64,000 nt of DNA from Rhizophagus irregularis (lineage: Eukaryota > Glomeromycota > Glomeromycetes > Glomerales > Glomeraceae), in contig NC_089435.1 of assembly GCF_026210795.1 (NCBI RefSeq), forward strand, positions 3,968,001 to 4,032,000. The letters are read 5' to 3'. The notes under the pieces were generated by a model that was not told the origin of the DNA, did not search any database, and saw only the letters and a list, made by a program, of their open reading frames with translations. This document shows, piece by piece, positions 30,040 through 61,403 of this stretch (positions within the stretch are counted from its first letter, which is position 1; each line of letters starts with the position of its first letter). Made by a program: the position numbers and the translations under genes.

Positions 30040-30720
30040 AAAAAATGCTGAAACCAATAATGATTCTGGCATTTTTACATGTAAAATCAAAAAGAAAAAC
30101 ACCAGAACTAATGATTCTGGTGTTTTTACATGTACAATTGAAAAAAATGCTGAAACTATGATCAGTTTTGATGTTTTTACATGTAAAATCAAAAAGAAAA
30201 ATGCTGGAACTAATTATTCTGGCGCTTTTACATGTAAAATTGAAAAAAAAATGCTAAAACTAATAGTTTCAGCATTTTTATATGTAGTTTTGGCATTTTT
30301 ATATGTAAAATTAAAAAGAAAACTGCCAGAACTAATGATTCCTGTATTTTTACATGTAAAATCAAAAAGAAAAATGCTGGAACTAATAATTCTGGCATTT
30401 TTACATGTAAAATCAAAAAAAAATGCTGAAACTATAACCAGTTTTGGCATTTTTACATGTAAAATTAAAAAAAAAATGCCAGAACTAATTATTCTGGCAC
30501 TTTTATATGTAAAATCAAAAAAAAAATGCCAAAACCATTAGTTTCAGCATTTTTACATATAAAATCAAAAAAAAATGCCAGAACTAATTATTCCAGCGCT
30601 TTTACATGTAAAATCAAAAAAAAATGCCAAAACTATCAGTTTTGGCATTTTTACATGTAAATAAAAAAAAATGCCAGAACTAATAATTCTGGCATTTTAA
30701 ATCAAAAAAATGTTAAAACT
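30040..30720. repeat. About 14 palindromic units of roughly 48 bp
   Basis: Each unit has the form AATGCCAGAACTAAT-loop-ATTCTGGCATT followed by the second palindrome TTTTACATGTAAAATC. Units differ, yet some differences are matched on both arms (CCAGAA with TTCTGG, CCAAAA with TTTTGG, ACCAGAA with TTCTGGT). The open frames on both strands across this array (30158-30541 and the reverse ones) follow from repeat periodicity and are not genes. Confidence 0.8.
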
Positions 30721-36806: not shown

Positions 36807-37580
36807 TAGAGTTCCGAATAGGTTAACCAAATTCAGGTAACCTGACAGGTTGACCAGGATCCCGTTTACTTATAATAAAAGTCACTGTAGAAAATTGGCT
36901 CTTTACTAATAGTTTTTACCTTACTTTTTTCTTAAATTCTATTGGTTAATTAGCTAAAAAGGAAAAAAATCATAACAATGTAACATAAAATTTCCTTTTA
37001 TAATAGGATCTGCAAAGAATTTTATATATGATTTTTACCAGTACTGGATGACCTATCTTATAAGTAAGCGAGGTCCTGGTTGACCTGAATTTATCAGGTC
37101 AGGTTTAGCAATTGCAATTTAGCATCAGTTCAGGTTGTAACATCAATATAACCTGAATGACCTGTTGATCTGAAACTATGATTTATATAATATAAGTGAT
37201 AGTATTATAATTCACTTTTTATATTAATTTATATAATAAAAGTGAGTTGCAATATTGAGATTCCCTTTTTATATTGATTTTATATAATAAAAGTGAGTTG
37301 CGATATCAGAATTCACTTTTTTATGTTAATTCTATATATAAAAGTGAGTTACGATATCGGGATTCACTTTTTTATATTGATTTTATATAAAAAAAGTTAG
37401 ATGCGATATTGCGATTCACCTTTTTATATGATTTTAATATAAAAAAGTGAATCGCAATATTTTCAAAAAAAATGGTTTACACCATTTTTTTTTTTTTGAT
37501 ATTTTAATAAAAAGCCTGAAAATTTTCAGATTTCAGTTCAGGTCAGGTTAAACAGATAATCTGATATAACCTAATCTGAC
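36807..37580. mobile_element. hAT-like TAGAG family relic carrying a younger MITE
   Basis: Left end TAGAGTTCCGAATAGGTT with AGGTAACCTGACAGGTTGAC subterminal words; right end AGGTCAGGTT...CTGAACTTTA. The two sides of the MITE at 36856-37077 rejoin cleanly. The part 37190-37500 consists of about 58-bp units alternating TATTGATTTTATATAA and AAAAGTGAGTTGCGATAT, also seen at 40080-40170 and 63610-63720. I could not define the duplication at the outer ends. Confidence 0.55.
36856..37077. mobile_element. 222-bp hAT-like MITE, copy 3 of 3
   Basis: Perfect 8-bp duplication ggttgacc at 36848-36855 and 37078-37085. The core AAATTCTATTGGTTAATT and AACAATGTAACATAAAATTT match the copies at 1834-2057 and 38308-38531. 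Its ends have diverged (CCCGTTTACTTATAATAA). Confidence 0.82.
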
Positions 37581-42480: not shown

Positions 42481-42827
42481 TAGGAATTTCCATGATTTCC
42501 TCCAGTAATCATAGGTAATCAATCCTTTTCTAGCAGATTATTTATTGCCATTTTCAAAATAGTATGCGCAGTATCGATCATTTGATTAAAAAAAACCCCG
42601 ATTTTTGCTAAATATTTTAAATCCAATATATATGTCGCATTATTTTTTAACGATACCTAAGATTTCCCAGCATTATTTGCACTAGTAGGTTCACCTACAG
42701 CTTTTTATAGAGTTATAGACCAAGTTATTACGTAATATTTGAAAGTTTTTTTCATTCAAAGTTTGCGATTATTCGCTGATTATTAAGATTATTCAAATTT
42801 TTCAACTTTAGACGTTGTTTTTTCCCA

Positions 42828-44017
42828 ATGGCTCGTGCTTTTAGTGAGGATCTAAAGTGGAGAATTATTTACCTTCATCATGATGGATATAGTCGAATAA
42901 AAATTGCCAGATTATTACACATTAGCAAATGCACTGTTGATAATATCTTGCAAATATATGTACAATGGGGAACGGTAGTAAATCCATGGCAAAAACCACC
43001 AGGACGTCATAAAACACTAACTCAAAATGAAATGAAGCTAATTTATAAGTAAAATAGTGTATTAATTTACTTTTGAATATTACTAATTGTATTATCAATT
43101 TAGATATTACGAGAGTTAGTTAAGGATAAGGTGGATTGGTATTTAGACAAATTAGTAGGAGAACTTGAGTAACAGACAGGAAAGTTGGTTTCTATTCCAA
43201 CTCTTTGGCGATCTTTAGTTTACTGTGGAATTAGTAGAAAGAAAGTATGTGCAAATTTATTATTATTTATTTATTTGTAGTTTTCTTTTTTTATTATTTT
43301 TTTTGTAATTTATTTTTATTGTTTTTGTATAGTTACATCAAGTAGCTTATGAACAGAATGAACTTCTTAGAAGCACATTTATTGCAAAAGTTGGACGTGA
43401 TTATAAACCTGAACAGCTTATATTTATGGATGAAGTTTCTAAAGATGAACGCACTTTATCTCGTGGATATGGTTATTCTTTAAAAAATACTTTTGCAATT
43501 AAAAAGAATGTATTTGTACGTGGAGTTCGTTATACAATATTGCCTGCATTTTCTTTACAAGGCATTATTGCTGTAGACATCATGGAAGGTAGCTGTATAA
43601 AAGAAATTTTTAAAAATTTTGTTATTTCAAATGTGGTAAGTTTAGGAATTGTTATAATAATTATTATCTTACTTATTTTACCTGTAATATTTATTTTTTT
43701 TTCTTGTATTAGGTTCCTCAAATGAATTCATATTCTGGTGAACAAAGTGTTCTTGTACTTGATAATGCGTGAATTCACCATGATCAAGATTTTGTAGAAT
43801 ATATTGAAGCATTTGGTGGTCGTGTTGAGTTTTTACCTCTTATTCGCCAGATCTTAACCCAGTTGAAACTTGTTTTTCCATTATAAAATCATTTTTAAAG
43901 AAATACAGGGACTTTGTCTATTCATGTAATGATCCTAAATATCCTCTTTTAATAGCATGTTCTCAAATTACTCCGGAGACAGCTATGAAAGTTTTTAAGG
44001 ATTCAATTTATATGTAA
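42828..44017 (+). pseudogene. IS630/Tc1-like transposase, left copy (broken)
   Basis: Four exons can be traced. Exon 1 (MARAFSEDLKWRIIYLHHDG) is a helix-turn-helix DNA-binding head with RIKIARLLHISKCTVDNIL. Exon 2 has DWYLDKLVGELE then a TAA at about 43,169 where the right copy has CAA. Exon 3 contains the first catalytic Asp in LIFMDE with LSRGYGYSLKNTF; exon 4 has VLDNA (second Asp), a TGA shared by both copies, and SPDLNPVETC (catalytic Glu) ending at TAA 44015-44017. The donor of intron 1 is CT here against GT in the right copy, and a base is missing in the LPxYSPDLNP motif. The enzyme is a DDE transposase of the Tc1/mariner-IS630 superfamily, inactive here. Confidence 0.88.
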
Positions 44018-44144
44018 TAGAACTTATAAATAAGAAATTTTGTAAAAACTAGAGTATATAGAAATTTTATTTTCATATTAGTCAAACTGTAAAATGTGAA
44101 TTTATTATATTATAAATGAAAATATAACATGAATTTTCTTGAAA

Positions 44145-45673
44145 TTATTTGTAACGTTTTGCTGCAGCTCTAAATGTTTTTCGCCACCCAATTTTATTTA
44201 CGCCTAACTGGTCAAATTCTGCATCTGTAAGATCATATATTTGATCTACAGTAATCCGTTCATTTTCAAATATATTTTTAAAATCAACTAATTTTTCTGT
44301 ATCACCATTCGCACCCAATTTAGTAAAGAATTCGTTAAGGGAAGGAACTGCTAGCTTTGGAGAAGACAATGGTGTATTAGAAGTATTAACCATATTTGAA
44401 TTTTGTGCAAGTGAAATCATTTGAGGTGTCATAGTAAAAAAAATTGGTGTCATATTAGAGCTTAAAAGTGTTTCTGTAGGTGTGGGTGGCTTGAAATTTC
44501 CTTTCGTACTGCTAGATTGTGAGAAAATCGGCAAATTCAGTGTTTGGAGTATCATCTGTAGACTTCAATGTAAAATAAAAAAAACTTATTAAAAAAATTA
44601 TTAGTTTTTTGATTGGTCAATAATAATTTATAAACATAATTACAATTTCTTTTGCCCAGCATTGCAAGTGCATAGCTGTAAGTTTTATATGTCTTTCATC
44701 GCCAATAAAACATGATGCATCATGCTGATTGCATTTGTATTTCTCTCTCAATTCACGAATTATATGGCCTTTTTGTTGTAAAATTGTACTGCACTTTTTT
44801 TTTTATTCAACTTGATATTCTCACTTTTGGATTCTTCAGAATTTGAGATTTCCTAAAACAATAAAAATAAATAAAAAATAGTTTTCTGTATAAAGAAATA
44901 TAAAGCAAATTACCTTTCTCTTTTGCCTTTTCTTTTTAAGAGAAACTATAATTGACATGTTCTTTTTTTTATCTACCAGTTTTTTGTAATCTGAGAGGAA
45001 CTTTTTATAATCTTATATGTCTTCTAATTGCGCTCCAGCCCCTCCTGATTTTTTTGGCTTAAATGATACTGAATAATCAGAATGCATAATTTCTCTATTA
45101 CCGGTTAATTTTCTAACATAATGGTGAATGTCTGCAAGTATATCATCTAATGATAAAGTCTCAATTTCTAACCATTTCGATGGTAATGATGGGCCAGCTG
45201 AGGGTTTTATGACCAAATTAAATGATATAGTAATTTGCTCAGTTTCAGATTTTTCATCCACTTCAAATTCATGCTTAGTATTATCATCAGATTCATCTAA
45301 GATAATACAATCATCATTTGTTTTATTATTTTCTAAAGAATTTGAAGTGTCCTTAGTAATAATGGATTTTCTCTGCCTTTGAAAATAACTGTGACATGAA
45401 GAGCAAAGAGTAAAGTTGAACTTTGTAGTAAGATCCAAAGAATAGTTGAAACGAGTGACATTATCTTTGATATATTCATATTGTTTGGAAAATAATTCAG
45501 ATGCAAAAACCTGAGAGTATGCAACCTTTACTTTGTTTGTCCTATTTTTTTTTACTTGGTTTTATAGTTTTGTCACATGAGCACATTCTTTTTCGAATAC
45601 TTAATTCATCTCCACAGTATAAACATTTCTTACAGCCAAGGCATATACCAATGAGATATTCTTTAAGGATCAT
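44145..45673 (-). pseudogene. Zinc-ribbon and SAM-domain protein, left copy (broken)
   Basis: From ATG 45673 the minus strand reads MILKEYLIGICLGCKKC then LYCGDELSIRKRMCSC, a cysteine-rich ribbon, but the nine-A run after KPSK throws the frame into TAG. The next frame continues with YSRVFASELFSKQYEYIKD, CSSCHSYFQRQRK, an acidic linker, KWLEIETLSLDDILADIHHY and a TAA at 45013-45015 where the right copy encodes Gln. After two introns the last exon (44145-44555) ends in a SAM domain: PSLNEFFTKLGANGD...NIFENERITVDQIYDLTD, EFDQLGVNKIGWRKTFRAAA. SAM domains mediate protein or RNA binding. The gene lies convergent to the transposase inside the same arm, suggesting it was mobilised as cargo or an accessory gene. 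Confidence 0.8.
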
Positions 45674-45731
45674 TATTCAAGTTGAAACACGAAAAAACAC
45701 AAAACTAAATTATTATAAAATCTAATAATTT

Positions 45732-45834
45732 ATCACCATTTTCAAAATGGTATGCGCAGTATCGATCATGCATTAAAAATGAATACCCGCTAAGAATACC
45801 AGGGGGTTGTTATCACGTGAACATTATCCAATTA
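45732..45834. repeat. Central 103-bp block between the arms
   Basis: Reads TTATCACCATTTTCAAAATG then GTATGCGCAGTATCGATCAT and ends CACGTGAACATTATCCAATT. The same block, inverted, is at 61404-61510 beyond the outer end of the right arm. The two blocks therefore bracket the right copy as terminal inverted repeats; the left copy lacks its outer block and has only the inner part of it at 42549-42590. Confidence 0.8.
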
Positions 45835-45889
45835 AATTATTAGATTTTATAATAATTTAGTTTTGTGTTTTTTCGTGTTTCAACTTGAA

Positions 45890-47442
45890 TAATAACACTT
45901 AAAGAATATCTCATTGGTACGTACCTTGGCTGTAAGAAATGTTTATACTGTGGAGATGAATTAAGTATTCGAAAAAGAATGTGCTCATGTGACAAAACTA
46001 TAAAACCAAGTAAAAAAAAATAGGACAAACAAAGTAAAGGTTGCATACTCTCGAGTTTTTGCATCTGAATTATTTTCCAAACAATATGAATATATCAAAG
46101 ATAATATCACTCGTTTCAACTATTCTTTGATCTTACTACAAAGTTCAACTTTACTCTTTCCTCTTCATGTCACAGTTATTTTCAAAGGCAGAAAAAATCC
46201 ATTATTACTAAGGACACTTCAAATTCTTTAGAAAATAATAAAACAAATGATGATTGTATTATCTTAGATGAATCTGATGATAATACTAAGCATGAATTTG
46301 AAGTGAATGAAAAATCTGAAACTGAGCAAATTACTATATCATTTAATTTGGTCATAAAACCTTCAGCTGGCCCATCATTACCATCAAAATGGTTAGAAAT
46401 TGAGACGTTATCATTAGATGATATACTTGCAGACATTCACCATTATGTTAGAAAATTAACCGGTAATAAAGAAATTATGCATTCTGATTATTCAGTATCA
46501 TTTAAGCCAGAAAAATCAGGAGGGGTTGGAGCGCAATTAGAAGACATACAAGATTATAAAAAGTTCCTCTCAGATTACAAAAAACTGGTAGATAAAAAAA
46601 AGAACATGTCAATTATAGTTTCTTTTAAAAAGAAAAGGCAAAAGAGAAAGGTAATTTGCTTTATATTTCTTTATACAGAAAACTATTTTTTATTTATTTT
46701 TATTGTTTTAGGAAATCTCAGATTCTGAAGAATCCAAAAGTGAGAATATCAAGTTGAATAAAAAAAAGAGTGCAGTACCAAAATTAGAAAATTTTTCTAC
46801 AATTTTACAACAAGAAGGCCATATAATTCGTGAATTGAGAGAGAAATACAAATGCAATCAGCATGATGCATCATGTTTTATTGGCGATGAAAGACATATA
46901 AAACTTACAGCTATGCACTTGCAATGCTGGGCAAAAGAAATTGTAATTATGTTTATAAATTATTATTGACCAATCAAAAAACTAATAATTTTTTTAATAA
47001 GTTTTTTTTATTTTAGATTCGAAGTACCACAGATGATACTCAAACACTGAATTTGCCGATTTTCTCACAATCTAGCAGTACGAAAGGAAATTTCAAGCCA
47101 TCCACACCTACAGAAACACTTTTAAGCTCTAATATGACACCAATTTTTTTTACTATGACACCTCAAATGATTTCACTTGCACAAAATTCAAATATGGTTA
47201 ATACTTCTAATACACCATTGTCTTCTCCAAAGCTAGCAGTTCCTTCCCTTAACGAATTCTTTACTAAATTGGGTGCGAATGGTGATACAAAAAAATTAGT
47301 TGATTTTAAAAATATATTTGAAAATGAACGGATTACTGTAGATCAAATATATGATCTTACAGATGCAGAATTTGACCAGTTAGGCGTAAATAAAATTGGG
47401 TGGCGAAAAACATTTAGAGCTGCAGCAAAACGTTACATATAA
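45890..47442 (+). pseudogene. Zinc-ribbon and SAM-domain protein, right copy (broken)
   Basis: Counterpart of 44145-45673 with different lesions: the start ATG is lost (AACACTT replaces ATGATCC), a G is missing before the second cysteine block, and TGC (Cys) has become TCC there, while the shared nine-A frameshift remains. From 46,300 the frame is open through KSETEQITISFNLVIKPSAG, HHYVRKLTGNKEIMHSDYSV and DYKKFLSDYKKLVDKKKNMS, across two introns, to the SAM domain and TAA at 47440-47442 (AAKRYI). Gln replaces the left copy's stop. Both copies descend from one broken ancestor. Confidence 0.8.
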
Positions 47443-47566
47443 TTTCAAGAAAATTCATGTTATATTTTCATTTATAATATAATAAATTCACATTTTACAG
47501 TTTGACTAATATGAAAATAAAATTTCTATATACTCTAGTTTTTACAAAATTTCTTATCTATAAGTT

Positions 47567-47876
47567 CTATTACATATAAATTGAATCCTTAAAAACTTTC
47601 ATAGCTGTTTCCAGAGTAATTTGAGAACATGCTATTAAAAGAGGATATTTAGGATCATTACATGAATGGACAAAGTCCCTGTATTTCTTTAAAAATGATT
47701 TTATAATGGAAAAACAAGTTTCAACTGGGTTAAGATCTGGCGAATAAGGGTAAAAACTCAACACGACCACCAAATGCTTCAATATATTCTACAAGATCTT
47801 GATCATGGTGAATTCACGCATTATCAAGTACAAGAACACTTTGTTCACCAGGATATGAATTCATTTGAGGAACTTA
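47567..47876 (-). pseudogene. IS630-like transposase, right copy, last exon
   Basis: Encodes VPQMNSYSGEQ, VLDNA, the shared TGA, then SPDLNPVETCFSIIKSFLKK and the end KVFKDSIYM. It is separated from the rest of the gene (60241-61121) by the 12.4-kb insertion, which fell at the acceptor of the last intron. Confidence 0.85.
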
Positions 47877-48059
47877 CTTTACAGAAACCTTGAATTTTTA
47901 AACAATACCGAATTGATATAATAATGATGTTAAATAAATATCGTGGCGATATCGAATTGCAAATGATATCATTATGATATCGCAATGATATCATTTCAAT
48001 ATTAATTCAATATATCGAAATGATATCGTAAAGATATTTGTTTGAAAAAATATCAGATC

Positions 48060-48850
48060 GATATCATTTCGATATTGTTATAACAACAATGAATTTTTTG
48101 AAAAATGGGAAGTAAATACGATATTAATATGATATCGTTCCAACATTAATTCAATATCAATATGATATCGTAAAGATATCACTTTATAATTATCTAATCG
48201 ACATCATAACGATATTGACGAAACATCAAATCGATATCATATCGATATTTCGATATTGTTATAACAATAATGAAAAATAGAAAGTAAATACGATATTAAT
48301 ATGATATCGTTCCAACATTAATTCAATATCAATATGATATCGTAAAGATATCACTTTATAATTATCTAATCGACATCATAACGATATTGACGAAACATCA
48401 AATCGATATCATTTCGATATTGTTATAACAATAATGAAAAATAGAAAGTAAATACGATATTAATATGATATCGTTCCAACATTAATTCAATATCAATATG
48501 ATATCGTAAAGATATCACTTTATAATTATCTAATCGACATCATAACGATATTGACGAAACATCAAATCGATATCATTTCGATATTGTTATAACAACAATG
48601 AAAAATAGAAAGTAAATACGATATTAATATGATATCGTTCTAACATTAATTCAATATCAATATGATATCGTAAAGATATCACTTTATAATTATCTAATCG
48701 ATATTGACAAATAACGAAACGATATCATTTTGATATTGTTATAACAATAATGATTTTTTTTAATAAATGCAATATCAATATAATATTATTTTAATATTAA
48801 TTCAGTATCAAAATAATATCAAAATGATATTATCTATAAAAATATCAAAT
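48060..48850. repeat. Left subterminal array, about 164-172 bp units
   Basis: Four close units start with AGTAAATACGATATTAATAT at 48111, 48283, 48447 and 48611, plus a diverged fifth. Each contains several ATGATATCGT, ATCGATATCA and CGATATTGTTATAACAA words, so the unit itself is partly palindromic. Later units are more alike (164-bp spacing twice) than the first. Confidence 0.88.
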
Positions 48851-50533
48851 CAATCAAATATCGTTAAATTCAATTTTATAATATTTTAATAATTTGTAAT
48901 CTAATTTAAAAGTTAATTTCAATAGATTTAAGTTACCGGTTATTTATTACAATAACAATTTTAATTACAGATAAAGTATACATTAGTTTAAATATTATAT
49001 AACAGATAAAAAAAATATCAATAAATCTATAATAAACTAATTCAATAAATTAGAATTATGAGTTAAATTAGTGATGTAAGTCAAAACATTATGCCTTAAT
49101 ACTCCAGAATCATAACTCATCAACCCAAAGTTGAGGATTAACCGGGTACCTTGCTTTAGATTCAGCGACACTGCCCAAGTTGGATGGGGTGTCACAGGTA
49201 CGCTTTAAGAAGACTCGCTACGACTCTATTGCAAAAAGGATAAGTATATTCGAAAACACCAGACATAAATTCACCTCAGAAGTTTGGCGGGAAACCCCTA
49301 TAAACAACTGCAGTTTCATCATTACCAAAATCATTGAACTTAGGGATACAATGAAAAAGTTCATGAGAATGACGGCTTTAAAAAAAAAATACAAATATAT
49401 TCTCAACTTTGACAATGCACCCTTATTCTTTGGCCTGGAATTCTCATATGACTAAATTATTATTGTTTGTAATTTGATCCATTGAATCCACTATAAATTG
49501 CCAGGCAAAGCGAACTTTTATTAGACAACCATAGCTTCATCAACAAACGTTGCAATGTGTTTGGACGGATGACATCCTGTTTAATAAATTTTAAATGGGC
49601 AAACGTGGACCTAAAACCCATTAGAAGATAGGCTGCAAGAAGTGCAAAGCAACCTACCTAACCCACAAGTGGGTCTAAGGGTTAGGGAATAAATTAACGC
49701 CCAAACACATACAAGTTGGTATGGAGTTAAAGTCTTACAAACTAAAAATTATTTTTGCCACTTAATTCTCCAATAATCAATGTTATAAAAAAGTTACTTA
49801 CGACTTAAGCCTACTTAATTATATATAAAATGACACTTCGAACAGACAGAGCTCATGATATATGAGAATATCCCATCATGCCTATTTTAACCCTTGATTA
49901 AAGGATTTTTGTTGCGTTATCAAACTGATTATATAAGTTTTACGCCTATATAACATAAGCTTATGCCCATATAATCAATCAAATAAGTCCGCCTTTTCCT
50001 ATAACACACTATGCACGACGGCAAACGGTATAGGAGGAAGACTCTAATTTTCAGAAAGAAAGTTTTTTTTTTTCAAAAAAAAAAAACGTACAAATAAATA
50101 GCGGTTAAATAAAATGGTGGTTGAATTGACTTTTTAGGAATTAATAGGTCTTATACGTGATCATTTAATATACGCGATCATTTAATTACGTGATCATTTA
50201 ATCAGACAATTTTATAAATTTGGTATTATACGAACTTGATCAACCAATAATTGTTTAGGTAATACACAGATGAGTTCTTTATAGGTGGATATTATCAAAA
50301 TAGAGCCAAATTAACTTTACACAGTTTATATAGATAATTGATTATTTAATGGTAATAACACAACAAGTTAAAGAAATTCAAATATGATTGAATCTCAACA
50401 GATATTCAAAACTTTTAAAACTTTTTGTGATTTTTCGATTGAAGCTAATTATTATTAAAGTCTATACCATTAAAAGAATATAATTAAATAAACTAAAAAG
50501 AAATACTCAATAAAACTCAATTTTATTTTTTTA
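48851..50533. other. Left internal spacer of the transposon, one doubtful frame
   Basis: The segment 49,080-49,740 is less AT-rich than its surroundings. A 91-codon plus-strand frame at 49180-49455 (TTG start, FENTRHKFTSEVWRETPINN) has mixed residues but no motif I know. The segment may be a coding relic. A phrase with GGGTCTAAGGGTTAGGG at 49,672-49,688 is not telomeric repeat. Confidence 0.35.
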
Positions 50534-51868
50534 TTAAAATTTTATAAAATCATTTATTAATGATTCTTCTTCATCATATAATTTTATAAGAACGCACCTA
50601 AATCTATAATTTAATTTTATTAATATATTATTATCAAAGGCGTGATGTGCGAAATAAATAAAATAACTTACTTGTTTTAGGGTATTTACTATATCACTTC
50701 CACTTCGGGAAGGGATAATTATATTTTTAGTCATGGTATCCAACTCCTTTATACCAGGTAAGTTTTTACCGTCCCAAGAAACGCGGACGGCTTCCTTAAC
50801 AAACTCAACTAACGTATCCATGCCTCCATTATTTGTCAATTCCAAAATATTGACAGCTGCGAGTTGACGGTTTAGAAGTTTCTGCACCACGTTTTCGTCA
50901 ACGTAATCTTTAATTTCTTTTTGGGAAAGATTTCCAGTCGTACCCCTATAATTAATTAATTAATAATTATACAAATAGCACTATTTTGTTGACTATAAAA
51001 CAATAAAATAAACAAATACCTGCTCTTTCTGATTTCTTTGTATTCCCTCACTAAATTTAGAATATTTTGGTTGAATTTATTTCTGAAGTCTGTTAAAGAC
51101 TTACGAGTTTTATCTAGATATCCTCTAGCTTTGCTAGTGTAAATTTTAAACCGAAAAATTTTCACAACTAAATTGTCGAGTGCTTCACTACTCGGATTTC
51201 TCACTCATAAAAATAAGCACTTTACCGACTCATCCCATAGTCGTATTTTATCCTAAAATATTGAGATACGTTATTTGAGATTTAGACATAATAAATATTA
51301 TCATATTGTATTAATACTAACTTCAGTATTCTTTGAACTAACAACATAAGATGATTCGTTCATCTCATTCGCTAATCGTAAGATTTCTGGATTTTTTACA
51401 AGCCAGTTACATATGTCTAATTTGGTACAAAACTGAAACGGATCTGGAATTGTTTTAGCCGCGCATAACTTGTCGTTATCATCATCATCTTCTTCTTCTT
51501 CCTCCTCCTCTTCTTCTTCACTTTTATCCCTTACATCCTCTTCTACTATTACTTCCTTTTCACTTTCGTTATGTTTTTGCCTGGTATTCATATCTGTATG
51601 TAATATATTATTTCAATTATTTCAATTAAAAATTAATAGAATAATATTAAAGAGCCAAAGCCTATATAAATTAATATTTACCTAATAATAATTGATTAGT
51701 TTCTTCAATATTTATTTCTCTCCTCTTTCTCGGTAAGGTCCTTTGATTTTTTTTCGATCCTATTATACATATTTCGGTTATTATTCTTACATATAAGCAA
51801 AACTTTTACGGAAGAGTTACATATATACCTATTTCGATTTCTATTTTTTTATTATTACGTTTAGTCAT
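50534..51868 (-). CDS. Acidic, helical accessory protein of the transposon (one stop)
   Basis: Five exons join in frame: 51829-51868, 51682-51759, 51322-51593, 51020-51252 and 50672-50945, with reading to TAA at 50534 either through or after a last intron. The protein starts MTKRNNKKIEIEIGSKKNQR (basic), then an acidic run of Glu/Asp (about residues 60-80), FCTKLDICNWLVKNPEILRL, a helical stretch with KARGYLDKTRKSLTDFRNKF, and LAAVNILELTNNGGMDTLVE. In exon 4 a TGA interrupts VKCLFL-stop-VRNPSSEAL; a Trp codon at that place would restore nothing else, so it is a single nonsense change. I recognise no family. Position and orientation (divergent from the other two genes) suggest an accessory transposition protein. 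Confidence 0.6.
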
Positions 51869-53643
51869 AATATCGTAATGAGAGAACAAGAAAAAATGAG
51901 AGAACGAGAAAAAAAGTGAAGTAAACTTCTCGCAAGATTGTCATGATATAAATGAGATCTCCTTGATCAAAAGAGCGAGATTGTCGATATAACCCCTTGA
52001 TCAAATATGGGATATAAAACGAGGTTGTCACAATATAAATGAGATCTTGGTTACTGTAATTTTAATTATAGAATGTAATTGGAAAGTATGCAGGATCTCA
52101 ATATCGTTGTGTACCGTATAAATTGAGGGGAATGCGGGATCAGTTGAAAATGTTGAAAGATGGAAAAAAACTATGATTTCTAGAGGATCGGAAATTAAAT
52201 TTAGTTTATATAAATAAATAATTACAATATCGAATTTCATTCAGTGACATTTTTTTTTATATGGAAGATTACCTCAAATCGATTTTACGGTTCCAAATTT
52301 TATTATATTTTCAGGCTATACGTGGAATGAGAAGAAAAATAATGGAAAGGGGTGAGAAGAAAAATGATCGGTAGAAGAAAAAGGAGTGAGAAGAAATTAA
52401 TGGAATATTATGTTTTGAATTTCCATTTTTATGTGTGATACGATGACATGCAAGAAAAATTAAATTTTTAAATAATTATACTCTTGACAATAAAATATAA
52501 AATATGATCGGAAAAAAACCAATCAATAAAAAAGATCGATTATTTTTAAACTGAACCATGTGATGATCCTATCTAACTAAGCCATATCTAAGCCTTATTT
52601 AGTGTAAGCCCCTGGATTGATTACATAAAAGAATTTTTTAAATAGATAGATGGGATCTACAGTAGTCAACTTACAACGATATTTGAAAAATACCGATATA
52701 TTGATATTTTATACTGTAGGAAAGAGTTTTAATACATATTGGTGTAATCAAATATCGGTATATAATGTATCAACTATACAAATAATGCATGTCATGTGCA
52801 ACTAATCATTTGTCTAATTGTTCGGTAATATTCTAAAACGGAGTAAATTAAGATCGAATTAAGTTCCTTACGGTGTAGATTAAGGTTAGCTTAAAATTCA
52901 GTATAATTGTAATATATCATCGCAGTGTAATATGAAATATAATCAAGGAAGGACATGCGTGGTTTAAAATATTACATTTTCTTTTACCTTAAATATAATT
53001 TGCAGATTACTTTCGTCTTCTTTATTGCTTTTTTTAATGTATAATTATAAATAACATTTTTAACTCACTTTTTATTAATAGAATTTGTTTATTTATTTTT
53101 ATTTATATATATTAATTAATGCCGTGATGCAGTATTACTGTAACTATATTTTTAAAATAAATTAATAAATCAAAAAATTATGTGTGTATTCAATGTTAAA
53201 TAAATTAATTAAAGATGATTGCATTAGAACTAAAAAATTTAGACAAGATCATAAAAATAAACTCAAAGAAATCAAAAAAAATATGTGTGTATTCAATATT
53301 AAATAAATTAATTAAAGATGATTGCATTAGAACTAGACAAGATCGTAAAAATAAACTCAAAGAAATCAAAAAAAAATTATGTGTGTATTCAATGTTAAAT
53401 AAATTAATTAAGGATGATTGCATTAGAACTAAAAAATTTAGACAAGATCGTAAAAATAAACTCAAAGAAATCAAAAAAAAATTATGTGTGTATTCAATGT
53501 TAAATAAATTAATTAAGGATTGCATTAGAACTAAAAAATTTAGACAAGATCGTAAAAATAAACTCAAAGAAATCATAATAAATTTATTATAAATATAGAG
53601 CCTTTTCTTGACATTTTCCCCATCAAACTAATAATATTTAATA
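51869..53643. other. Divergent spacer between the element's genes
   Basis: Holds repeated words such as AAATGAGATCT and CGAGATTGTC (51,930-52,060) just upstream of the minus gene, then AT-rich sequence and the minisatellite at 53,177-53,590. It must contain both promoters, but I see no definite element. Confidence 0.4.
53177..53590. repeat. Minisatellite of four units, 96-105 bp
   Basis: Units start TGTGTGTATTCAATGTTAAA at 53181, 53284, 53380 and 53485. Each includes TTAATTAAAGATGATTGCAT and TAGACAAGATCGTAAAAATA. A 125-codon frame (53215-53592) runs through three units because two spacings are multiples of three; the reverse strand is also open, so I treat it as repeat rather than gene. It lies just upstream of the SANT gene and may be 5' regulatory or untranslated sequence. 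Confidence 0.7.
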
Positions 53644-54209
53644 ATGGCAGCATTAAACTTAAACGCAAATCTTCCAGTATACATTCAATGGCCCGATGAC
53701 GCTGCTTTGACCTTAATTCAGCGTCGTCAGACCTATCAGCCCTTATTCACCACAACGAGGTTACATGACCAAAAACAATTATGGCGTGGAATTGCTCGTG
53801 ATATACGAAACAACCACACATTCAGGCCAACTAGAAAACAATGCAGAGAGAAGTGGAATGCACTAAAGGCGGGATACGAGAATCTAGAGAGGCTAATCAA
53901 TAGAAATCCTGATGATTACCTACTCGTACCCTGTCTTTGCATGACGAGAGGTTCCACCAAGAACTCTCAGACGAGTTCTGGAGAGTTGAGCGTAAGTATT
54001 TATTATTTAACTGATTTTTTCATTAATTCATTGCATTTATATTAATAATTGCTTTGTTTTAAGCATTAGTCCGGTCCTCCCGGAGAAATAGGGTGGATCG
54101 TAGGACATACGAGTATAGAGAGCGCAGGCGCTCTAGGCGCTCTCGCTCCCGATCCCCCTACCACCACCGAGAGCGCGGGCGCTCTCATTCTCGATCTCAT
54201 CGTCACTGA
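53644..54209 (+). CDS. Myb/SANT-like DNA-binding protein with RS-rich tail (frameshifted)
   Basis: Start ATG 53644. Residues about 35-90 form a Myb/SANT-like helix bundle: LWRGIARDIRNNHTFRPTRK then QCREKWNALKAGYENLERL, the tryptophan-spaced pattern of trihelix/Myb-like domains. Around 53,935 the frame shifts by one base; the next frame gives LHDERFHQELSDEFWRVE, then an intron (GTAAGT at 54,016 region start, TTTTAAG acceptor before 54,063) and RSRRSRSRSPYHHRERGR, an Arg/Ser-rich tail to TGA at 54207-54209. Without correction the frame runs to 54045 and would lose the tail. In Harbinger and CACTA elements such small proteins bind transposon ends; the subterminal arrays are obvious candidate targets. 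Confidence 0.72.
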
Positions 54210-54219
54210 CGTCATTAAT

Positions 54220-54415
54220 ATTTTTATTTCATTTTATTTTTTATTTTATTTTATTATATGTTTTATTTTATTTTATTATTATGTTTTATTTTATTTTATT
54301 ATTATGTTTTATTTTATTTTATTATTATGTTTTATTTTATTTTATTATTATGTTATATTTTATTTTATTATTATGTTTTATTTTATTTTATTATATACTT
54401 ATTATTTTATTCAAT
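54220..54415. repeat. 27-bp tandem repeat TTTTATTATTATG
   Basis: ATGTTTTATTTTATTTTATT-like units follow each other about six times with little variation. It directly follows the SANT gene and could form its 3' flank. Confidence 0.85.
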
Positions 54416-54658
54416 AAATGACATTATTCGATAATATTATTTGTCATACCAATTGTCATTAACCATATACAGTATAATTGACCCTAAATTTTGTGTATCC
54501 ATTAATAGCCAAATCGGCATTAATTTAACCGAAGTGATTATTTAATTGGCAATTGCATTTTTTTTTTTTGCCGACACGCTTAATAAATTTAAAGTTCTAA
54601 TTGAATTAATAAAATTCTAGTTAAATTTAAATTAATTTAAATTGTAATTGTTATAAAG

Positions 54659-57600
54659 ATGAGGAGACGATATAGTCACGCCAAACCAATAAAACCAATT
54701 CGAATTCGAAATCGGTTTTCTTACAGCAATCTTGGTGAGACAACTACTTCCGGTGAGAGACGTTCACCTGTACGTTCACCTGATAATGATGACGATAACA
54801 TGGACTTTCAGTATAATCACGAAGATAATGATTTAAGTTTTCAGGACATTAATAATGATGATAATGAATATGGATCAATTGGTCCTCAGTATTACAATGA
54901 TGAGATGGAAGATGATGATCAATCATTTGATAATGAAGAGGAAGAAGAAACTGACAATGAATACAATAGTGAAGAGGAAGAGGAAAATGACAATGAATAC
55001 AATAGGGATGAGGAGGAAGATGATGATAATGGAGACAATAATGAAGAGGAGGAAGAGGAAGGTAATAATGAAGAGGAAGAGGAACGTAACAATGACGAAG
55101 AGGAACGTAATGACAACGAAGAGGAAGAAATACATCAAATTGTTGAAGCTTTGGATGAAGACAAAATACCGTCCTGCAATGGTGAATTTGCACCGTACTT
55201 TGATAATTATACAACTACGGCACTATTTTGTTGGCTTCAGAAGCATAATGTTTCTACAAAAGCATATGAAGACCTTGTTGATATCATTCACAATCCTCAA
55301 TTCGAACCTACTCATGTAGTAAAAAATATCCGTAGATTCCAATCATGGAGAAAACGTCTTCCTCTCCTACCAATAATAACAAAGCCTATTCAAATTTTAC
55401 CAAAAAAAACTCCGTCAACTTCGCGAGATTCGAAGCTTTTATATCAACTCTCAATTAGTGATATTATATTGCGTGTTCTCAACAATCCAATGCTGATGAA
55501 GCATATGTATTTCGGACCCGGTGTTAATTCTGAAACAAAGTCAGAATATTGGCATAGAACTTTATGGGGAGAATCACCACTTTTTGGACAACATGAAATA
55601 ATAATATCAGAAGGTAATAGGACAATATACTTTGGTATAATTATAATTTGTTAACATTAAAATATTTATTTTAATAAAATAGTAATATATCAATCTGGTG
55701 ATTTTGTCTACTATCATGATAATGGTCTTAAAAAACGTGGAAGGTTGAGAGCAATTTTAAAAGATGAAAATGGAAACTATGAGTTACGAGTTCAACTAAT
55801 TTTAAATTATGATGATTTACCTGGAAATATAAAAGGGCTATCAAGACGACGTCGTTCTCTAACTGGGGAAGTATGGTTTCAGGATGAACCATTTATAACC
55901 ATAATTACCTCTCAAATTTTAGAGAAAGTAACTATAATGATGACGTATAAACACCAAATTATTCCAGAAGGTTCATTACGAATTACTGAAATAATTTATA
56001 AATGTAATGACCGTTGGCACGTTCGTGATGCAAAGCTTTCATACCAACATCCTTCAGATTACATTTCTGTCAGAAATCCACCGTCGTCTATGCCAGTTTA
56101 TAAGCTGTTTTTAGATCTTTACTATGATGATTTTGGTACATTTAGAAATGTATACCATTCCTTAGGTGGCGTCTATATACAGTTTGGTAACATGCCAACG
56201 CATCAGAGAAAGCTAATCAAGAACCATTTTGTTCTTGGATTTATTCCTTTTGGTGGAAATTTTAACGAGTTTATGGTACCATTTGTTTCAGAAATAAAAA
56301 AAATTTGAGAAAGGAAAGATTATGACTGTTCAAAGACAAGATGCATGGGTTATTGCTGGGTTGGGCCTTGTTACAGCAGATCTACCTCAAGGTAATGATA
56401 TGGCAGGAGTACTGAGGTATTTTTCAATTTAATTATTAATCTTAATAATATATTTTCGTAATAACTATTAAAATGATTTAAATTTAAAAATCAATTTAGA
56501 CATAATGCAAATAAAGGTTGCCGTACTTGTACAACTAAAAAGGAATCATTGAGTACCTATAATCAGGATAGTGTGACAACATTACGTTATCATCATATCA
56601 CAGATGAAGAAATTTCAAAAATTTCTCAAGAATCTGTAAGTTCAAAAAGAGGACAACTTTGTACAGAATATGGTTTAAGATCATTACCTAGTATTTTGGA
56701 TAAATTAAAACGTGAGAGACATTTACAGACGCCACAGGATATTTATCATGCCACCGCAGGAAAGATTGGGCGGCTACTAAAACTAACCTGTGAATTATTT
56801 TCACAAGAAGGAGAGGATGATTTTGTTAAAATTTGGAAAAATTTTGAAATTCCAAAAAAGTGGTCTCGTCTACCAAATCCAATTAGTCATTACAATAGCT
56901 TTATGATGTCTGATCTTCTTAGACTAGCTATAATTATGCCATTTTTATTAAATCGATTTTTAAAGGAATCAAGCCTCAAAAATAATGAAGCAGCCACTAT
57001 TCGACAAAGGATTGATGTGGCTCGAATTAGCTTAGTGCTAAAAGCTATTATATCTTGTTGGGTACAAGTTGCAAAGACTATGAAAGCAGTTTTTAATAAG
57101 GAATTTACGTTAGATAGCTATGAGGAATTACAGCTATGTCTTAAAGAAGAGTTTTTAATTCTTCCAAAGGTATAATTATAAATTTGAAATTCAGAACATG
57201 GAATAATTTAATAATTAACAATATTTTGTTTTTTTATAGGTTTTTGCAAGTTTTGTTAACTTACCAAATATACATATTAATATGCATCTTTTGATGCATG
57301 CTAAAACTTTTGGTACACTTGTCAACTCTCAGGTTGGTATAAAAGAGATGGTTCATCGTATCTTTAAAGGAATGGTACCAAAAACTAATTGCAAAACTAT
57401 AGACCTGGATTTATTAAAACGTTACAATACTTTATTTGCAATTCGACATTTAGCAGATGGAGGTATAGATCCAAGATTAAATAGATCTTGTACTGGGTTC
57501 ACAAGTTCAAATTTTGATCAATTATTTTCGAATTGGTATGTTACAGAAGATAAATATTTAATTGAGGAACAAATTCAAAATGATGACGTAAAAGGTAAGA

Positions 57601-58243
57601 TAGCAAAATATTATAGTACTTCATATTTATTTTTTCACATATGCATAATATTTACTAAACTTTTAATTTAGTTACTTCACCAGTAAATTTTATTTCCAAT
57701 ATTTCCTTAAAAAAAAGAATGTCAAAGTAGGAACATGATAAACTTCTCTTGACTTTGCATAATTTTAAAATTGAATTGTTTTTATCTTATGTGGATATGA
57801 AGTTTGAGGCGGCACTTATAAATTCTTCAATTAGTTGGTACAAATTAGCATCATATACAATTGAAGAAAAAAATGGTATTCTTTCAAAAGTTCACCTACA
57901 TCTCGGTGATTTTATCACAATTTATGAAGAAGATCATGAAGAATCTTATGCAATAATCAAAGGTATCTTTCAACATAAGGGTAATAATAACAAATATTAT
58001 GCATTTATTGTTGTAGATTGGTTTGAAGATACTATGGTTGAACATTCAGTATTAAAATGTCCACTTTACCGTCTTCAAGCAACAGGAGATAAATGGAGAC
58101 GTATTTTTCCAATTACTGTAATAGATAATGTTCAAAAAGTACATTTTATTCATAATTGTAATTCAGAAAGGTGCCAACTACCAAATCATGATACTACAAA
58201 TAGAATTTGGATAAAAAATAATTTTTATTTTACAGCCATATAA
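54659..58243 (+). CDS. CACTA/Plavaka-like transposase (one frameshift, one stop)
   Basis: Five exons: 54659-55613, 55683-56416, 56500-57169, 57240-57594, 57672-58243, all with GT-AG borders, about 1,090 codons. The N-terminal part is basic, then an acidic Glu/Asp/Asn run (residues 80-165), then FDNYTTTALFCWLQKHNVST, a region usual in fungal CACTA-like proteins. Exon 2 has LFLDLYYDDFGTFRNVYHSL with GGVYIQFGNMPTHQRKLIKN and HFVLGFIPFGG, the likely catalytic Asp region, then GLGLVTADLPQGNDMAGVLR; exon 3 opens with HNANKGCRTCTTKKES, a CxxC. The C terminus carries KVHFIHNCNSERCQ and KNNFYFTAI. An eight-A run at 56,294-56,301 shifts the frame (KKI, stop) and TAG at 57,728 interrupts MSK-stop-EHDK. 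DDE-type chemistry is inferred from family resemblance. Confidence 0.75.
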
Positions 58244-59399
58244 TTATATTAATTATATAAATATAATAAAATAATTATTTAATTTGTATCGTATAAAATT
58301 TTGGTTAAAATTAACCAATAAAATCATATGCATGATGTAATAATAAATTAAAATTAACCAATTAAAATCACTTTAATTACATGCATGTGATATCTAAAAA
58401 TAGCTAAAATTCGCGTTTATTAATGAGATTTTTTTTGTTTATTTTCAAAAATACACTTTTCTCTTGTCTTTTATATTAACACTTTACGGTATTTTGTTCG
58501 TCTCTTCTTTTCTCTTTTTAAAGTATACTTTAATTATCTTTTTACAATATTAACAATACTTTGGGACACTTTAGTTTATATATTCAACATAGTAAAACAC
58601 CCACATACGAAAAGCAAGAATAAAAAAAGAATAAAGAAAAGAAAATGTACCCACCACTCACATACGAAAGAAAAGAATAAAAGAAAGGAAAAATGTACCC
58701 ACTTAACCACATACAAAAGAGAAAAAAGCCATTTTTTAAATAAATAGTGGAGCTGTTAAGCAAGGTATGAAAATAGGATATACGCGTATTTTTCATATTT
58801 TTTTTACAATATGTTGTGATTTGAGTATTTTTTTGTTAGACTGTGGTATAAATGTGAATATATTTTTCAACGGCCATGTATCTATTGCTTGTTAAATATA
58901 TTTGCAATTTCTTTTGTAATATTTGCTTTAGCCTGGAAGAAAATGTTGTAAAATAGGGCTGGATATTTATGGCATTTTCCGCCTTCCAATTACTTTGTCC
59001 GGGGGTAGCCTGACAATTTGTCGTTGTCCGTCAGTCGTAGCAACCAGCATTTTTTTACAATATTATGATTTTAAGAAACAAAACACTCTCAAAAAAATTT
59101 AAAGAAAGAACTAACTTAAAAATATTATCATTTTTATTATTCTTTACAAAATCCCGGAATTACCTGCTCTAACTATTATCCCAAGGTTATGTATTAAATT
59201 TTAAATATATTTTACAAAGAATACATTTTATTAATCATGATTGTTTTTTTTATATATATATATATTTTTTATCCATCCACTCACATACGAAAAGAAAAGA
59301 ATAAAAAAGAGAAGAAAAAGGAAGAAAAGAAACGTACTCCACTCACCCATAATAATTCACTAATAAAAAATTATTATTATTAATGTATAATAAATAATA
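58244..59399. other. 3' internal spacer with CACATACGAAA repeats
   Basis: No gene. Three to four copies of CACCCACATACGAAAAG followed by AAGAATAAAGAAAAG and ATGTACCCAC occur at 58,590-58,740, and again at 59,275-59,350. A GC-richer patch near 58,990-59,040 has no recognisable content. Confidence 0.45.
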
Positions 59400-60200
59400 A
59401 ACATATATTACAATAAAAATATTTTTGTGATGTTAATTCAGTGTTGATATAATATCATTACAATGTAGTTACGATATTAAATAAATGTAAAACATTTTTT
59501 GTAATATTAATTCGATATTAATATGATATTATTATGATGTAGTTACGATATCAAATAAAATTGTAATATTAATTCAATGTTAATACGACATCACTACGAT
59601 GTGGCTACGATATCAAACAGATGTAAAATATTTTTGCAATATTAATTCGATGTTAATATGATATCACTACGATGTGGTTACGATATCAAATAAAATGTCA
59701 AATATTTTGTAATATTAATTCAATGTTAATACGACATCACTACGATGTGGCTACGATATCAAACAGATGTAAAATATTTTTGCAATATTAATTCGATGTT
59801 AATATGATATCACTACGATGTGGTTACGATATCAAATAAAATGTCAAATATTTTGTAATATTAATTCAATGTTAATACAATATCACTACGACATGGTTAC
59901 GATATCAAATAAAATGTCAAATATTTTGTAATATTAATTCAATATTAATATGACATCACTACGATGTGGTTACGATATCAAATAAATGTCAAATATTTTT
60001 GTAATATTAATTCAATGTTAATACGACATCACTATGATGTGGTTACGTGATAATATTTATATCGCATAATGATCGCAGCGATATCGCAGAGATATCGAAC
60101 TAATCAATATCGAATAAATACAGTTACGACTAACTTAACGATATCGAATCTATATTTTATCAAAATATCGTAATGATATCGTAATGATATCATTGCGATA
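59400..60200. repeat. Right subterminal array, about 73 bp (146-bp dimer)
   Basis: Units read AATATTAATTCAATGTTAAT then ACGACATCACTACGATGTGG and CTACGATATCAAA; alternate units are more alike, giving a 146-bp higher-order period (59,581 and 59,727). The word TTAATTCAATRTYAATAYGA is shared with the left array in the same orientation. Confidence 0.85.
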
Positions 60201-60240
60201 TCTAATCAATATCGATTGTAAACTCCAAGTTTCAGCAAAG

Positions 60241-61121
60241 TAATACAAGAAAAAAAAATAAATATTACAGGTAAAATAAGTAAGATAATAATTATTATAA
60301 CAATTCCTAAACTTACCACATTTGAAATAACAAAATTTTTAAAAATTTCTTTCGTACAGCTACCTTCCATGATGTCTACAGCAATAATGCCTTGTAAAGA
60401 AAATGCAGGCAATATTGTATAACGAACTCCACATACAAATACATTCTTTTTAATTGCAAAAGTATTTTTTAAAGAATAACCATATCCACGAGATAAAGTG
60501 CGTTCATCTTTAGAAGCTTCATCCATAAATATAAGCTGTTCAGGTTTATAATCACGTCCAACTTTTGCAATAAATGTGCTTCTAAGAAGTTCATTCCGTT
60601 CATAAGCTACTTGATGTAACTATACAAAAACAATAAAAATAAATTACAAAAAAAATAACAAAAAAAGAAAACTACAAATAAATAAATAATAAATTTGCAC
60701 ATACTTTCTTTCTACTAATTCCACAGTAAACTAAAGATCGCTAAAGAGTTGGAATAGAAACCAACTTTCCTGTCTGTTGCTCAAGTTCTCCTACTAATTC
60801 GTCTAAATACCAATCCACCTTGTCCTTAATTAACTCTCGTAATATCTAAATTGATAATACAATTAGTAATATTCAAAAGTGAATTAATACACTATTTTAC
60901 TTATAAATTACCTTCATTTCATTTTGAGTTAGTGTTTTATGACGTCCTGGTGGTTTTTGCCATAGATTTATTACCGTTCCCCATTGTACATATATTTGCA
61001 AGATATTATCAACAGTGCGTTTGCTAATGTGTAATAATCTGGCAATTTTTATTCGACTATATCCATCATGATGAAGGTAAATAATTCTCCACTTCAGATC
61101 CTCACTAAAAGCACGAGCCAT
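60241..61121 (-). pseudogene. IS630-like transposase, right copy, exons 1-3
   Basis: Exon 1 (61121 down) has MARAFSEDLKWRIIYLHHDG and a correct GT donor after NEMK. Exon 2 encodes the Gln lost in the left copy but has TAG for the Trp of TLWRSL at about 60,741. Exon 3 (60,630 to about 60,300) has LIFMDE and RGYGYSLKNTFAIKKNVFV. The last intron is interrupted by the 12.4-kb element at 60,240. Together with 47567-47876 this is one gene broken independently of its partner. Confidence 0.87.
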
Positions 61122-61403
61122 TGGGAAAAAACAACGTCTAAAGTTGAAAAATTTGAATAATCTTAATAATCGGCGAATAATCGCAAACTTTGAACGAAAA
61201 AAACGTTTAAATATTACGTAATAACTTGGTCTATAACTCTATAAAAAGCTGTAGGTGAACCTACTAGTGCAAATAATGCTGGAAAATCCTAGGTATCATT
61301 AAAAAATAATGCGACGCATATATTGGATTTAAAATATTCGGCAAAAATTGGGGTTTTTTTAATCAAATGATCGATACTGCGCATACCATTTTGAAAATGG
61401 CGA
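61122..61403. repeat. Outer end of the right arm
   Basis: Inverse of 42,549-42,827: the transposase 5' flank with ATTATTTGCACTAGTAGGTT on the opposite strand, closing with the TIR word GCCATTTTCAAAATGGTATG. Joined to 60241-61121 it completes the second arm. Confidence 0.85.

What the first reader, a model, noticed from the sequence alone, without database searches (positions are those of the whole stretch)
47877..60240. A 12.4-kb three-gene transposon with paired satellite-like ends
Comparison with the unbroken left arm (43,713) fixes both borders to the base: TA duplicated, TIR CTTTRCWGAAACYTKGARTT. Between large subterminal arrays sit a CACTA/Plavaka-like transposase, a Myb/SANT protein with an RS-rich tail and an unrecognised acidic protein. 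I know of CACTA elements with two proteins and subterminal repeats, but the ends here are not CACTA and the duplication is 2 bp. This may be a distinct lineage with its own accessory genes.
Basis: partly seen in the sequence, partly recalled or inferred. Interest (0 to 1): 0.85.

Follow-up and report, generated by a model that had tools for sequence, protein, structure and literature searches.

The report
Fungal transposon with swappable gene cassettes
This is a real, multi-copy 'jumping gene' whose well-conserved ends carry a constant pair of genes plus an exchangeable DNA-binding gene, of a kind also found in unrelated jumping genes of the same genome, which suggests that transposons trade helper genes.

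Summary
The element is real: 12,364 bp, 47877-60240, between imperfect 20-bp inverted ends. The genome holds 58 left and 63 right exact ends. They form 41 facing pairs, all left-right, 27 of them 12.0-14.1 kb. In 34 of 41 pairs the flanks repeat 2 bp: TA in 22, but also TT, AA, AT, GG, GT, so TA is preferred, not required. Unbroken sites exist. The transposase carries C(2)C, H(3)H and a following E, the mark of the CACTA/Transib/Plavaka (CMCT) clade, and is remotely similar to Plavaka; CTTT..AAAG ends and the lack of a significant Pfam match set it apart. I call it a new variant of a known kind.

(1) The acidic gene is the transposase's standing partner: in 41 of 41 pairs, and beside 27 of 58 relatives away from these ends. 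(2) Copies are mosaics: ends mostly 95-100% identical, inner genes of different types. In 5 of 41 pairs another Myb/SANT gene, on the opposite strand, replaces the usual one. Relatives of these two SANT types sit beside a hAT and a DUF4218 transposase. The window copy is broken.

The parts
47875..47876 (.). left target site duplication TA
47877..47896 (+). left terminal inverted repeat CTTTACAGAAACCTTGAATT
   Evidence: 58 exact copies in the genome
47948..48830 (.). left subterminal array, 164-bp unit, rich in GATATC / ACGATATCA; outer limits approximate
   Evidence: TRF; 22 GATATC in the first 1 kb
50534..51868 (-). acidic protein gene (A), at least four exons by reading; coordinates approximate, 3' end of the gene not resolved; type A2
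   Evidence: ORFs; junctions read in copy C19; A found in 41 of 41 pairs on this strand; no Pfam match above cut-off
53172..53587 (.). 105-bp tandem array just upstream of the SANT gene
   Evidence: TRF
53644..54209 (+). Myb/SANT gene with RS-rich tail (type SA), two exons by reading; frame broken in this copy compared with C19 and C31
   Evidence: PF13837 1.5e-10; copies C19, C31
54222..54411 (.). 23-bp TTTTATT-rich tandem array between SANT gene and transposase gene
   Evidence: TRF
54659..58243 (+). transposase gene (T), five exons by reading; C(2)C and H(3)H-E motifs; type T2 in exons 1-4; frame broken in exon 2 and a stop in exon 5 compared with C31
59400..60218 (.). right subterminal array, 73/146-bp unit, rich in GATATC / ACGATATCA; outer limits approximate
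   Evidence: TRF; 15 GATATC in the last 850 bp
60221..60240 (-). right terminal inverted repeat CTTTGCTGAAACTTGGAGTT
   Evidence: 63 exact copies in the genome
60241..60242 (.). right target site duplication TA

Best explanation
The feature is a copy of a large DNA transposon family of the CMCT clade (CACTA/EnSpm-Mirage-Chapaev-Transib with Plavaka, ESTA, Lanisha), in a lineage with CTTTRCWGAAAC ends. Its core is a divergent pair: the transposase T and the acidic partner A. Most likely T cuts at both ends, recognising an asymmetric left and right end, and inserts with a 2-bp stagger into AT-rich sites, TA preferred. A most likely plays the part that TNPA plays for maize En/Spm: a helper that binds or bridges the subterminal arrays. 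The Myb/SANT gene is an exchangeable plug-in, replaced at least twice between nearly identical ends, and related to SANT genes that sit downstream of a hAT and of a DUF4218 transposase. Recombination between copies keeps the ends alike and lets gene modules of different age circulate. Shown: ends, duplication, empty sites, copy number, gene order, mosaicism, SANT replacement, linkage of SANT relatives to hAT and DUF4218 transposases. Inferred: the enzymatic roles of T and A, the route and direction of exchange, the function of SANT, current activity.
For: Ends and duplication. Gene order: A minus in 41/41 pairs, SANT type SA plus in 34/34, type SB minus in 5/5, T plus in 32/32 pairs where listed. 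Clade motifs: C(2)C invariant in 14 of 14 aligned transposases; H(3)H and an E 20 residues later invariant in 6 of 6, two of the six from this family. Plavaka profile comparison 88.7%, reversed controls 0.1%. A is T's partner: 75 of 114 T places have A within 16 kb, 67 divergent, 6 tandem, 2 convergent, 2.3 by random placement; of 58 T places over 20 kb from any exact end, 27 have A, 22 divergent and 5 tandem, 1.2 by chance. Mosaic: window and C19 differ by 0-4% in the noncoding blocks inside the arrays (window 48877-49876 and 58377-59376), but at 54 of 229 fourfold sites in T exons 1-4 and 26 of 40 in A exons; T exon 5, next to the right end, 2 of 50. SANT replacement: C16 carries a different PF13837 gene on the opposite strand. 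Linkage: 56 of 78 SA relatives lie near a hAT transposase, 24 of 59 SB relatives near a DUF4218 transposase, all same strand and downstream.
Against: T has no Pfam match above cut-off in copy C19 (best: Lin-15B, E 0.058). Among 14 members one touches Plavaka at 0.022, and an unrelated model, Lin-15B, scores better (two members, best 0.0065). No solved structure is matched (best E 1.2 and 0.7). A has no recognisable domain (best E 0.0057 for a DUF), so its TNPA-like role rests on linkage alone. 39 of 114 T places had no A detected. 7 of 41 pairs lack an identical 2-bp flank. GATATC is absent from both ends of the 8.3-kb relative C18:832019, so the arrays are not lineage-wide. Protein identities misled: copies C19b and C26b proved ordinary by DNA. 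Gene structures are my readings, without transcripts; hit lists from the genome are capped.
Confidence: 0.74

Rival explanations
1. It is simply a Plavaka element, the group already reported as prevalent in Rhizophagus irregularis, with unremarkable accessory genes.
For: Profile comparison with four Plavaka loci of the same genome gives 88.7% against 0.1% for reversed controls. PlavakaA makes 2-bp duplications (PMC12730594, passages).
Against: No PF18759 match in copy C19; 123 PF18759 places and 96 T places are never within 2 kb; ends CTTT..AAAG, not TGT..ACA or CATCA..TGATG.
Confidence: 0.2
2. The Myb/SANT protein, not the acidic one, is the subterminal-array binder (the TNPA analogue), and the acidic protein is a regulator or a second transposase subunit.
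For: The SANT-like domain of this Pfam type is named DNA-binding; the Nuwa group of Harbinger elements encodes a Myb/SANT partner (PMC12730594, passage). 40 of 41 pairs hold a SANT gene. The C18 relative lacks both a SANT gene (ORF reading) and GATATC arrays, which fits this rival.
Against: Different SANT genes sit between similar arrays; C3:4290300 also shows A and T without a SANT gene; the hAT piece carrying an SA relative shows no ACGATATCA motif in the 5 kb read.
Confidence: 0.25
3. The mosaic reflects only gene conversion that homogenises the ends, plus one or two old gene replacements; no ongoing exchange of cassettes.
For: Ends and T exon 5 are alike while inner genes differ. Few combinations were seen among the 16 copies read: A1-SA-T1, A2-SA-T2, A1-SB-T1, A2-SC without T.
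Against: The SANT region of the window (A2, T2) is 91-98% identical to that of nine A1/T1 copies whose A gene differs by about 30%; SB and SC are further replacements.
Confidence: 0.35
4. Assembly chimera or chance array of repeats.
For: AT-rich, repetitive region; the element sits inside a large palindrome.
Against: 41 pairs with the same order and strands, duplications at 34 of 41, unbroken paralogous sites.
Confidence: 0.02

Closest known systems
Plavaka (CMCT clade, fungi)
   Same: Transposase motif order and C(2)C, remote profile similarity; 2-bp duplication in PlavakaA (PMC12730594, passages)
   Different: No PF18759 match in C19, CTTT..AAAG ends, divergent acidic partner gene, Myb/SANT plug-in
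CACTA / En-Spm of plants (transposase TNPD plus array-binding TNPA)
   Same: Large element, short inverted ends, asymmetric subterminal arrays, two-protein core (PMC2613891, passages)
   Different: Ends not CACTA, 2-bp instead of 3-bp duplication, genes separate and divergent instead of alternatively spliced, third exchangeable gene
ESTA (EnSpm-like with TA duplications, Puccinia)
   Same: CMCT transposase with a 2-bp, TA-rich duplication (PMC12730594, passages)
   Different: Here TA is preferred only; ESTA sequences are not held, so kinship is untested
TET/JBP dioxygenase genes carried by several fungal DNA transposon lineages (Kojima 2025, PMC12730594, passages)
   Same: An accessory gene passed between transposon lineages
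   Different: Here a Myb/SANT gene, replaced by non-orthologous versions between nearly identical ends of one family
PIF/Harbinger (transposase plus Myb/SANT protein in the Nuwa group)
   Same: A Myb/SANT accessory protein
   Different: Transposase, ends and duplication differ; SANT is additional to the A-T core

Membership tests
CMCT clade | C(2)C and H(3-4)H between second D and last E of the transposase | tested here: met
   C280/C283 invariant in 14 members; H12/H16 and E36 invariant in 6 members; definition from PMC12730594 passages
CMCT clade | 2-5 bp target site duplication | tested here: met
   identical 2-bp flanks in 34 of 41 pairs against 37.5% for non-partners
CMCT clade | CA..TG termini (in most cases) | tested here: not met
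   ends are CTTT..AAAG; the paper says 'in most cases', so not strictly defining
CMCT clade | placement in the transposase tree | not tested
   sequences of the named lineages not held, apart from Plavaka loci of this genome
Plavaka | match to PF18759 above cut-off | tested here: not met
   no match in C19 at E up to 10; 1 of 14 members at 0.022; no shared places
Plavaka | termini TGT..ACA or CATCA..TGATG | tested here: not met
   ends read directly
Plavaka | remote homology of the transposase | tested here: inconclusive
   hhalign 88.7%, E 2.6e-6 for one pairwise comparison; reversed 0.1%
CACTA/EnSpm | CACTA (CAC..GTG) ends and 3-bp duplication | tested here: not met
ESTA | TA duplication and ESTA transposase | not testable with these tools
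   duplication TA in 22 of 41 pairs; ESTA sequences not held
Tc1/mariner | obligatory TA duplication (recalled) | tested here: not met
   TT, AA, AT, GG, GT in 12 of 34 matching pairs; an AT site confirmed against an unbroken copy, 80 of 80 bases
PIF/Harbinger | Harbinger transposase with a Myb/SANT partner | tested here: not met
   Myb/SANT gene present, but no Harbinger match for T in Pfam

The most novel reading that the evidence does not exclude
Transposons of different superfamilies in one fungal genome (this CMCT lineage, a hAT and a DUF4218 group) draw on a common pool of Myb/SANT helper genes. The genes move between them as cassettes, one type with its RS-rich tail, and are replaced within one family while its ends stay nearly unchanged, so helper genes evolve like the modules of phage genomes.
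Probability: 0.5. Interest if true: 0.78.

Novelty: new variant of a known kind. Interest (0 to 1): 0.64.

Why it matters
CACTA-group elements such as En/Spm need a second protein that recognises their subterminal repeats, and it has been asked how rapidly that protein and the repeats co-evolve (PMC2613891, passages). Here nature has swapped one candidate protein between similar arrays and kept another, which turns the question into a direct test. It would also show that transposons of unrelated superfamilies share and trade accessory genes, as reported for TET/JBP genes (PMC12730594, passages), and would give an anatomy to a large family whose common type is 98-99% alike between copies, in what is probably a genome with two-thirds of its transposons unclassified (PMC11075540, abstract).

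Tried and rejected
Rejected: strict TA duplication. Not found: short non-autonomous copies with both exact ends; the shortest pair is 8,178 bp, but copies with altered ends were not sought. Rejected: copies C19b and C26b as recombinants; protein identities suggested other types, DNA showed the common one. Rejected: the left-right rule as proof of a pairing rule; copies inherit both ends from one ancestor. Considered: structure prediction of T; its stated rule names window sequences and loci from three tools, not from the fetch from genomes, so I sent none. Led nowhere: Pfam and PDB searches with the transposase and the acidic protein. Literature searches (listings only, passages of three papers) showed no description of the element, but the library holds open-licence papers only, and supplementary files, where a R. 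irregularis transposon library (PMC11075540) might list it, could not be read. I cannot say that it is unpublished. Not followed: SANT places 54-60% identical to SA outside the listed ends.
Full report
WHAT IS THERE. The window lies at C7:3968001-4032000 of a 146.7-Mb genome in 32 contigs; size and low GC (19-32% per 2 kb of window) fit Rhizophagus irregularis, which is my inference. The element runs from 47877 to 60240. Its left end CTTTACAGAAACCTTGAATT and right end CTTTGCTGAAACTTGGAGTT occur 58 and 63 times exactly in the genome; the patterns read backwards never. The combined pattern has 135 hits; of the other 14, nine were listed, all CTTTGCAGAAACCTTGAATT. Of neighbouring ends that face each other within 45 kb there are 41 pairs, each one left and one right end. 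Sizes run from 8,178 to 44,478 bp; 27 of 41 are 12.0-14.1 kb. The longest probably hold nested insertions or are wrong partners. No shorter pair of exact ends was found.

INSERTION SITES. In 34 of 41 pairs the two bases outside both ends are identical: TA 22, TT 5, AA 3, AT 2, GG 1, GT 1; non-partner ends agree in 37.5%. The seven exceptions include the 37.6-kb and 17.5-kb pairs and two whose left flank is array sequence. So the duplication is 2 bp, with TA preferred. For copy C14 an unbroken copy of the site lies beside another element, 80 of 80 bases identical, with duplication AT. Two weaker cases: copy C8 sits inside a tandem repeat (93 of 118), and the C18 pair looks inserted into an array of another family member, where only some 30 bases agree (62 of 118).

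GENES. Three genes are read in the window: acidic gene A on the minus strand, Myb/SANT gene and transposase T on the plus strand. The window copy is broken: against copies C19 and C31 its SANT frame is shifted and T exon 5 has a stop, and against C31 T exon 2 is shifted. C19 (C19:408779-421255) reads as intact; of three splice choices for its exon 4 I took the one giving a 1,120-residue T. Over the 41 pairs, taking hits, whose lists are capped, A is found in 41 (always minus), a SANT gene in 40 (34 type SA, plus strand; 5 type SB, minus strand; 1 type SC, plus strand), T in 32 (always plus). The one pair without a listed SANT hit, C16:2691200, is 97% identical over its first 6 kb to the SC copy C15:3240369. 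SC is weak: PF13837 at 0.0016, below cut-off.

MOSAIC COPIES. Eleven full copies, the window's and ten others, were aligned. The common type is 98.3-99.7% alike among nine of them, C16 about 91%. Against the window, blocks near both ends are mostly 95-100% identical (the last block of the right array 92-95%), but the A gene 66-74%, T 83-90%, and the stretch between them with the SANT gene 91-98%, except C16 with 52-57%. Fourfold sites between window and C19 differ at 54 of 229 in T exons 1-4 and 26 of 40 in the A exons, but 2 of 50 in T exon 5, which adjoins the right end; 4 of 29 in SANT, part of it compared out of frame. Selection on ends would hardly make noncoding flanks that alike while synonymous sites diverge; recombination or conversion can. 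C31:1222101, whose exact right end was not found, is a second copy of the window's type (96-98% alike). Copy C16:2061096 matches C19 at 92-94% on both sides, but between them a 2.4-kb stretch is replaced by a different 2.9-kb one with another PF13837 gene (5e-8) on the opposite strand. Two copies of 8.2 and 8.8 kb carry an A2-like gene and lack nearly all of T. Types among the 16 copies read: A1-SA-T1, A2-SA-T2, A1-SB-T1, and A2-SC without T.

WHAT THE TRANSPOSASE IS. Pfam gives nothing above cut-off for the C19 protein (best Lin-15B, 0.058). Fourteen transposases of this genome, C19 and 13 relatives, 34-60% identical to the first of the alignment, share an invariant C-x2-C; both D residues are conserved in at least 80%. 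In six, two of them of this family, H-x3-H and an E 20 residues on are invariant. Kojima 2025 (PMC12730594; [quoted passage not shown] The spacings 19 (D to C) and 20 (H to E) agree with those of RAG1 as I recall them. Against four Plavaka loci of the same genome hhalign gives 88.7%, E 2.6e-6; with either side reversed 0.1%. Yet of 123 Plavaka places and 96 T places, those I had transcribed, none lie within 2 kb; of 14 T members one touches PF18759, at 0.022, and two touch Lin-15B, best 0.0065. I place T in the CMCT clade by motif, outside Plavaka by Pfam, with no tree.

THE ACIDIC PROTEIN IS THE CONSTANT PARTNER. A has no Pfam match above cut-off in C19, and its relatives only weak ones (best 0.0057). 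A distant A protein (L095, 37% identical to that of C19) found A genes beside many distant T genes. Of 114 T places transcribed, 75 have an A place within 16 kb: 67 divergent, 6 tandem, 2 convergent; uniform random placement gives 2.3 on average, at most 7. Many of these are the family itself; of the 58 T places over 20 kb from any exact end, 27 have A, 22 divergent and 5 tandem; chance 1.2, at most 6. 39 T places lack a detected A and 30 of 104 A places a detected T; both lists are capped and the queries miss remote forms. One complete relative, C18:832019-840288 (8,270 bp, TA duplication, ends CTTTGCAGAAAC...), shows A and T and no SANT gene among ORFs of 85 residues or more. C3:4290300-4300200 likewise shows A and T only (ORFs of 95 or more), its ends not found.

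THE SANT GENE HAS RELATIVES IN OTHER TRANSPOSONS. From I took 78 of 150 rows, 34-48% identical to SA, leaving out the family and closer or fragmentary rows. The one read with its surroundings (C1:1997944) lies downstream of a hAT transposase (DUF659 2.1e-14, hAT dimerisation 2.5e-5) and has the same order, SANT exon then RS-rich exon. Aligned with the family's protein (C19) it scores 254, against at most 63 for 200 shuffles. Of the 78 places 56 lie within 6 kb of one of 83 hAT places, all same strand and downstream; chance 0.4. Of 59 SB relatives (weaker rows and SA-like rows dropped), 24 lie within 6 kb of one of 71 places, of 150, of a DUF4218 transposase, all same strand and downstream; chance 0.3. 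That DUF4218 marks CACTA-like transposases is recalled. Cross-checks: SA near DUF4218 2 of 78, SB near hAT 0 of 59. 22 and 35 relatives have no such neighbour listed. Who gave to whom is not resolved.

HOW IT LIKELY WORKS. T, alone or with A, pairs the unlike ends, cuts and inserts with a 2-bp stagger (inferred from duplication and motifs). The GATATC/ACGATATCA sites, dense in both arrays and rare between them, are natural binding sites for a helper. En/Spm needs such a helper, TNPA, besides its transposase (PMC2613891, passages read). A is the better candidate because it is constant while SANT varies between similar arrays. Against this, the C18 relative has A but no GATATC array and no SANT gene, as the rival would predict, so A would have to have changed its site. 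SANT may act on transcription or on host silencing instead; that is a guess.

NOVELTY. The clade is known and Plavaka is reported as prevalent in R. irregularis (PMC11075540, passages read). The combination of CTTT..AAAG ends, a divergent acidic partner and a replaceable Myb/SANT gene was in none of the passages or listings I saw; supplements and most subscription papers were out of reach.

Noticed in passing
window 42589-47874 and 60243-61360: The insertion target is one arm of a large palindrome (arm pairs 94-99% complementary, 100 nt at the centre, 45733-45832) whose arms carry a Tc1-like gene (HTH_23 1.2e-9; DDE_3 0.0025, below cut-off) and a gene with a weak SAM domain match, below cut-off.
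   Followed up: partly
L110 (C1:1995700-2000700): A near-identical multi-copy hAT family with a SANT gene and RS-rich tail downstream, followed by many copies of a GTTTCGGCA-like motif; beside it lies a family-B DNA polymerase fragment (DNA_pol_B_2 7.5e-7).
   Followed up: partly
L108+L097 (C16:4047700-4064600): A relative with about 76% identical transposase core and some ten listed copies, a likely right end CTTTGCTGAAATC, an 88-bp GATATC-bearing array near it, and an A gene; no left end found in the piece read.
   Followed up: partly
window 53172-53587 and 54222-54411: The SANT gene is bracketed by two tandem arrays (105-bp and 23-bp units), possible recombination points for module replacement.
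   Followed up: no
window 30058-30698 and 37182-37461: Separate tandem arrays of 49-51 bp units (TRF), not examined.
   Followed up: no
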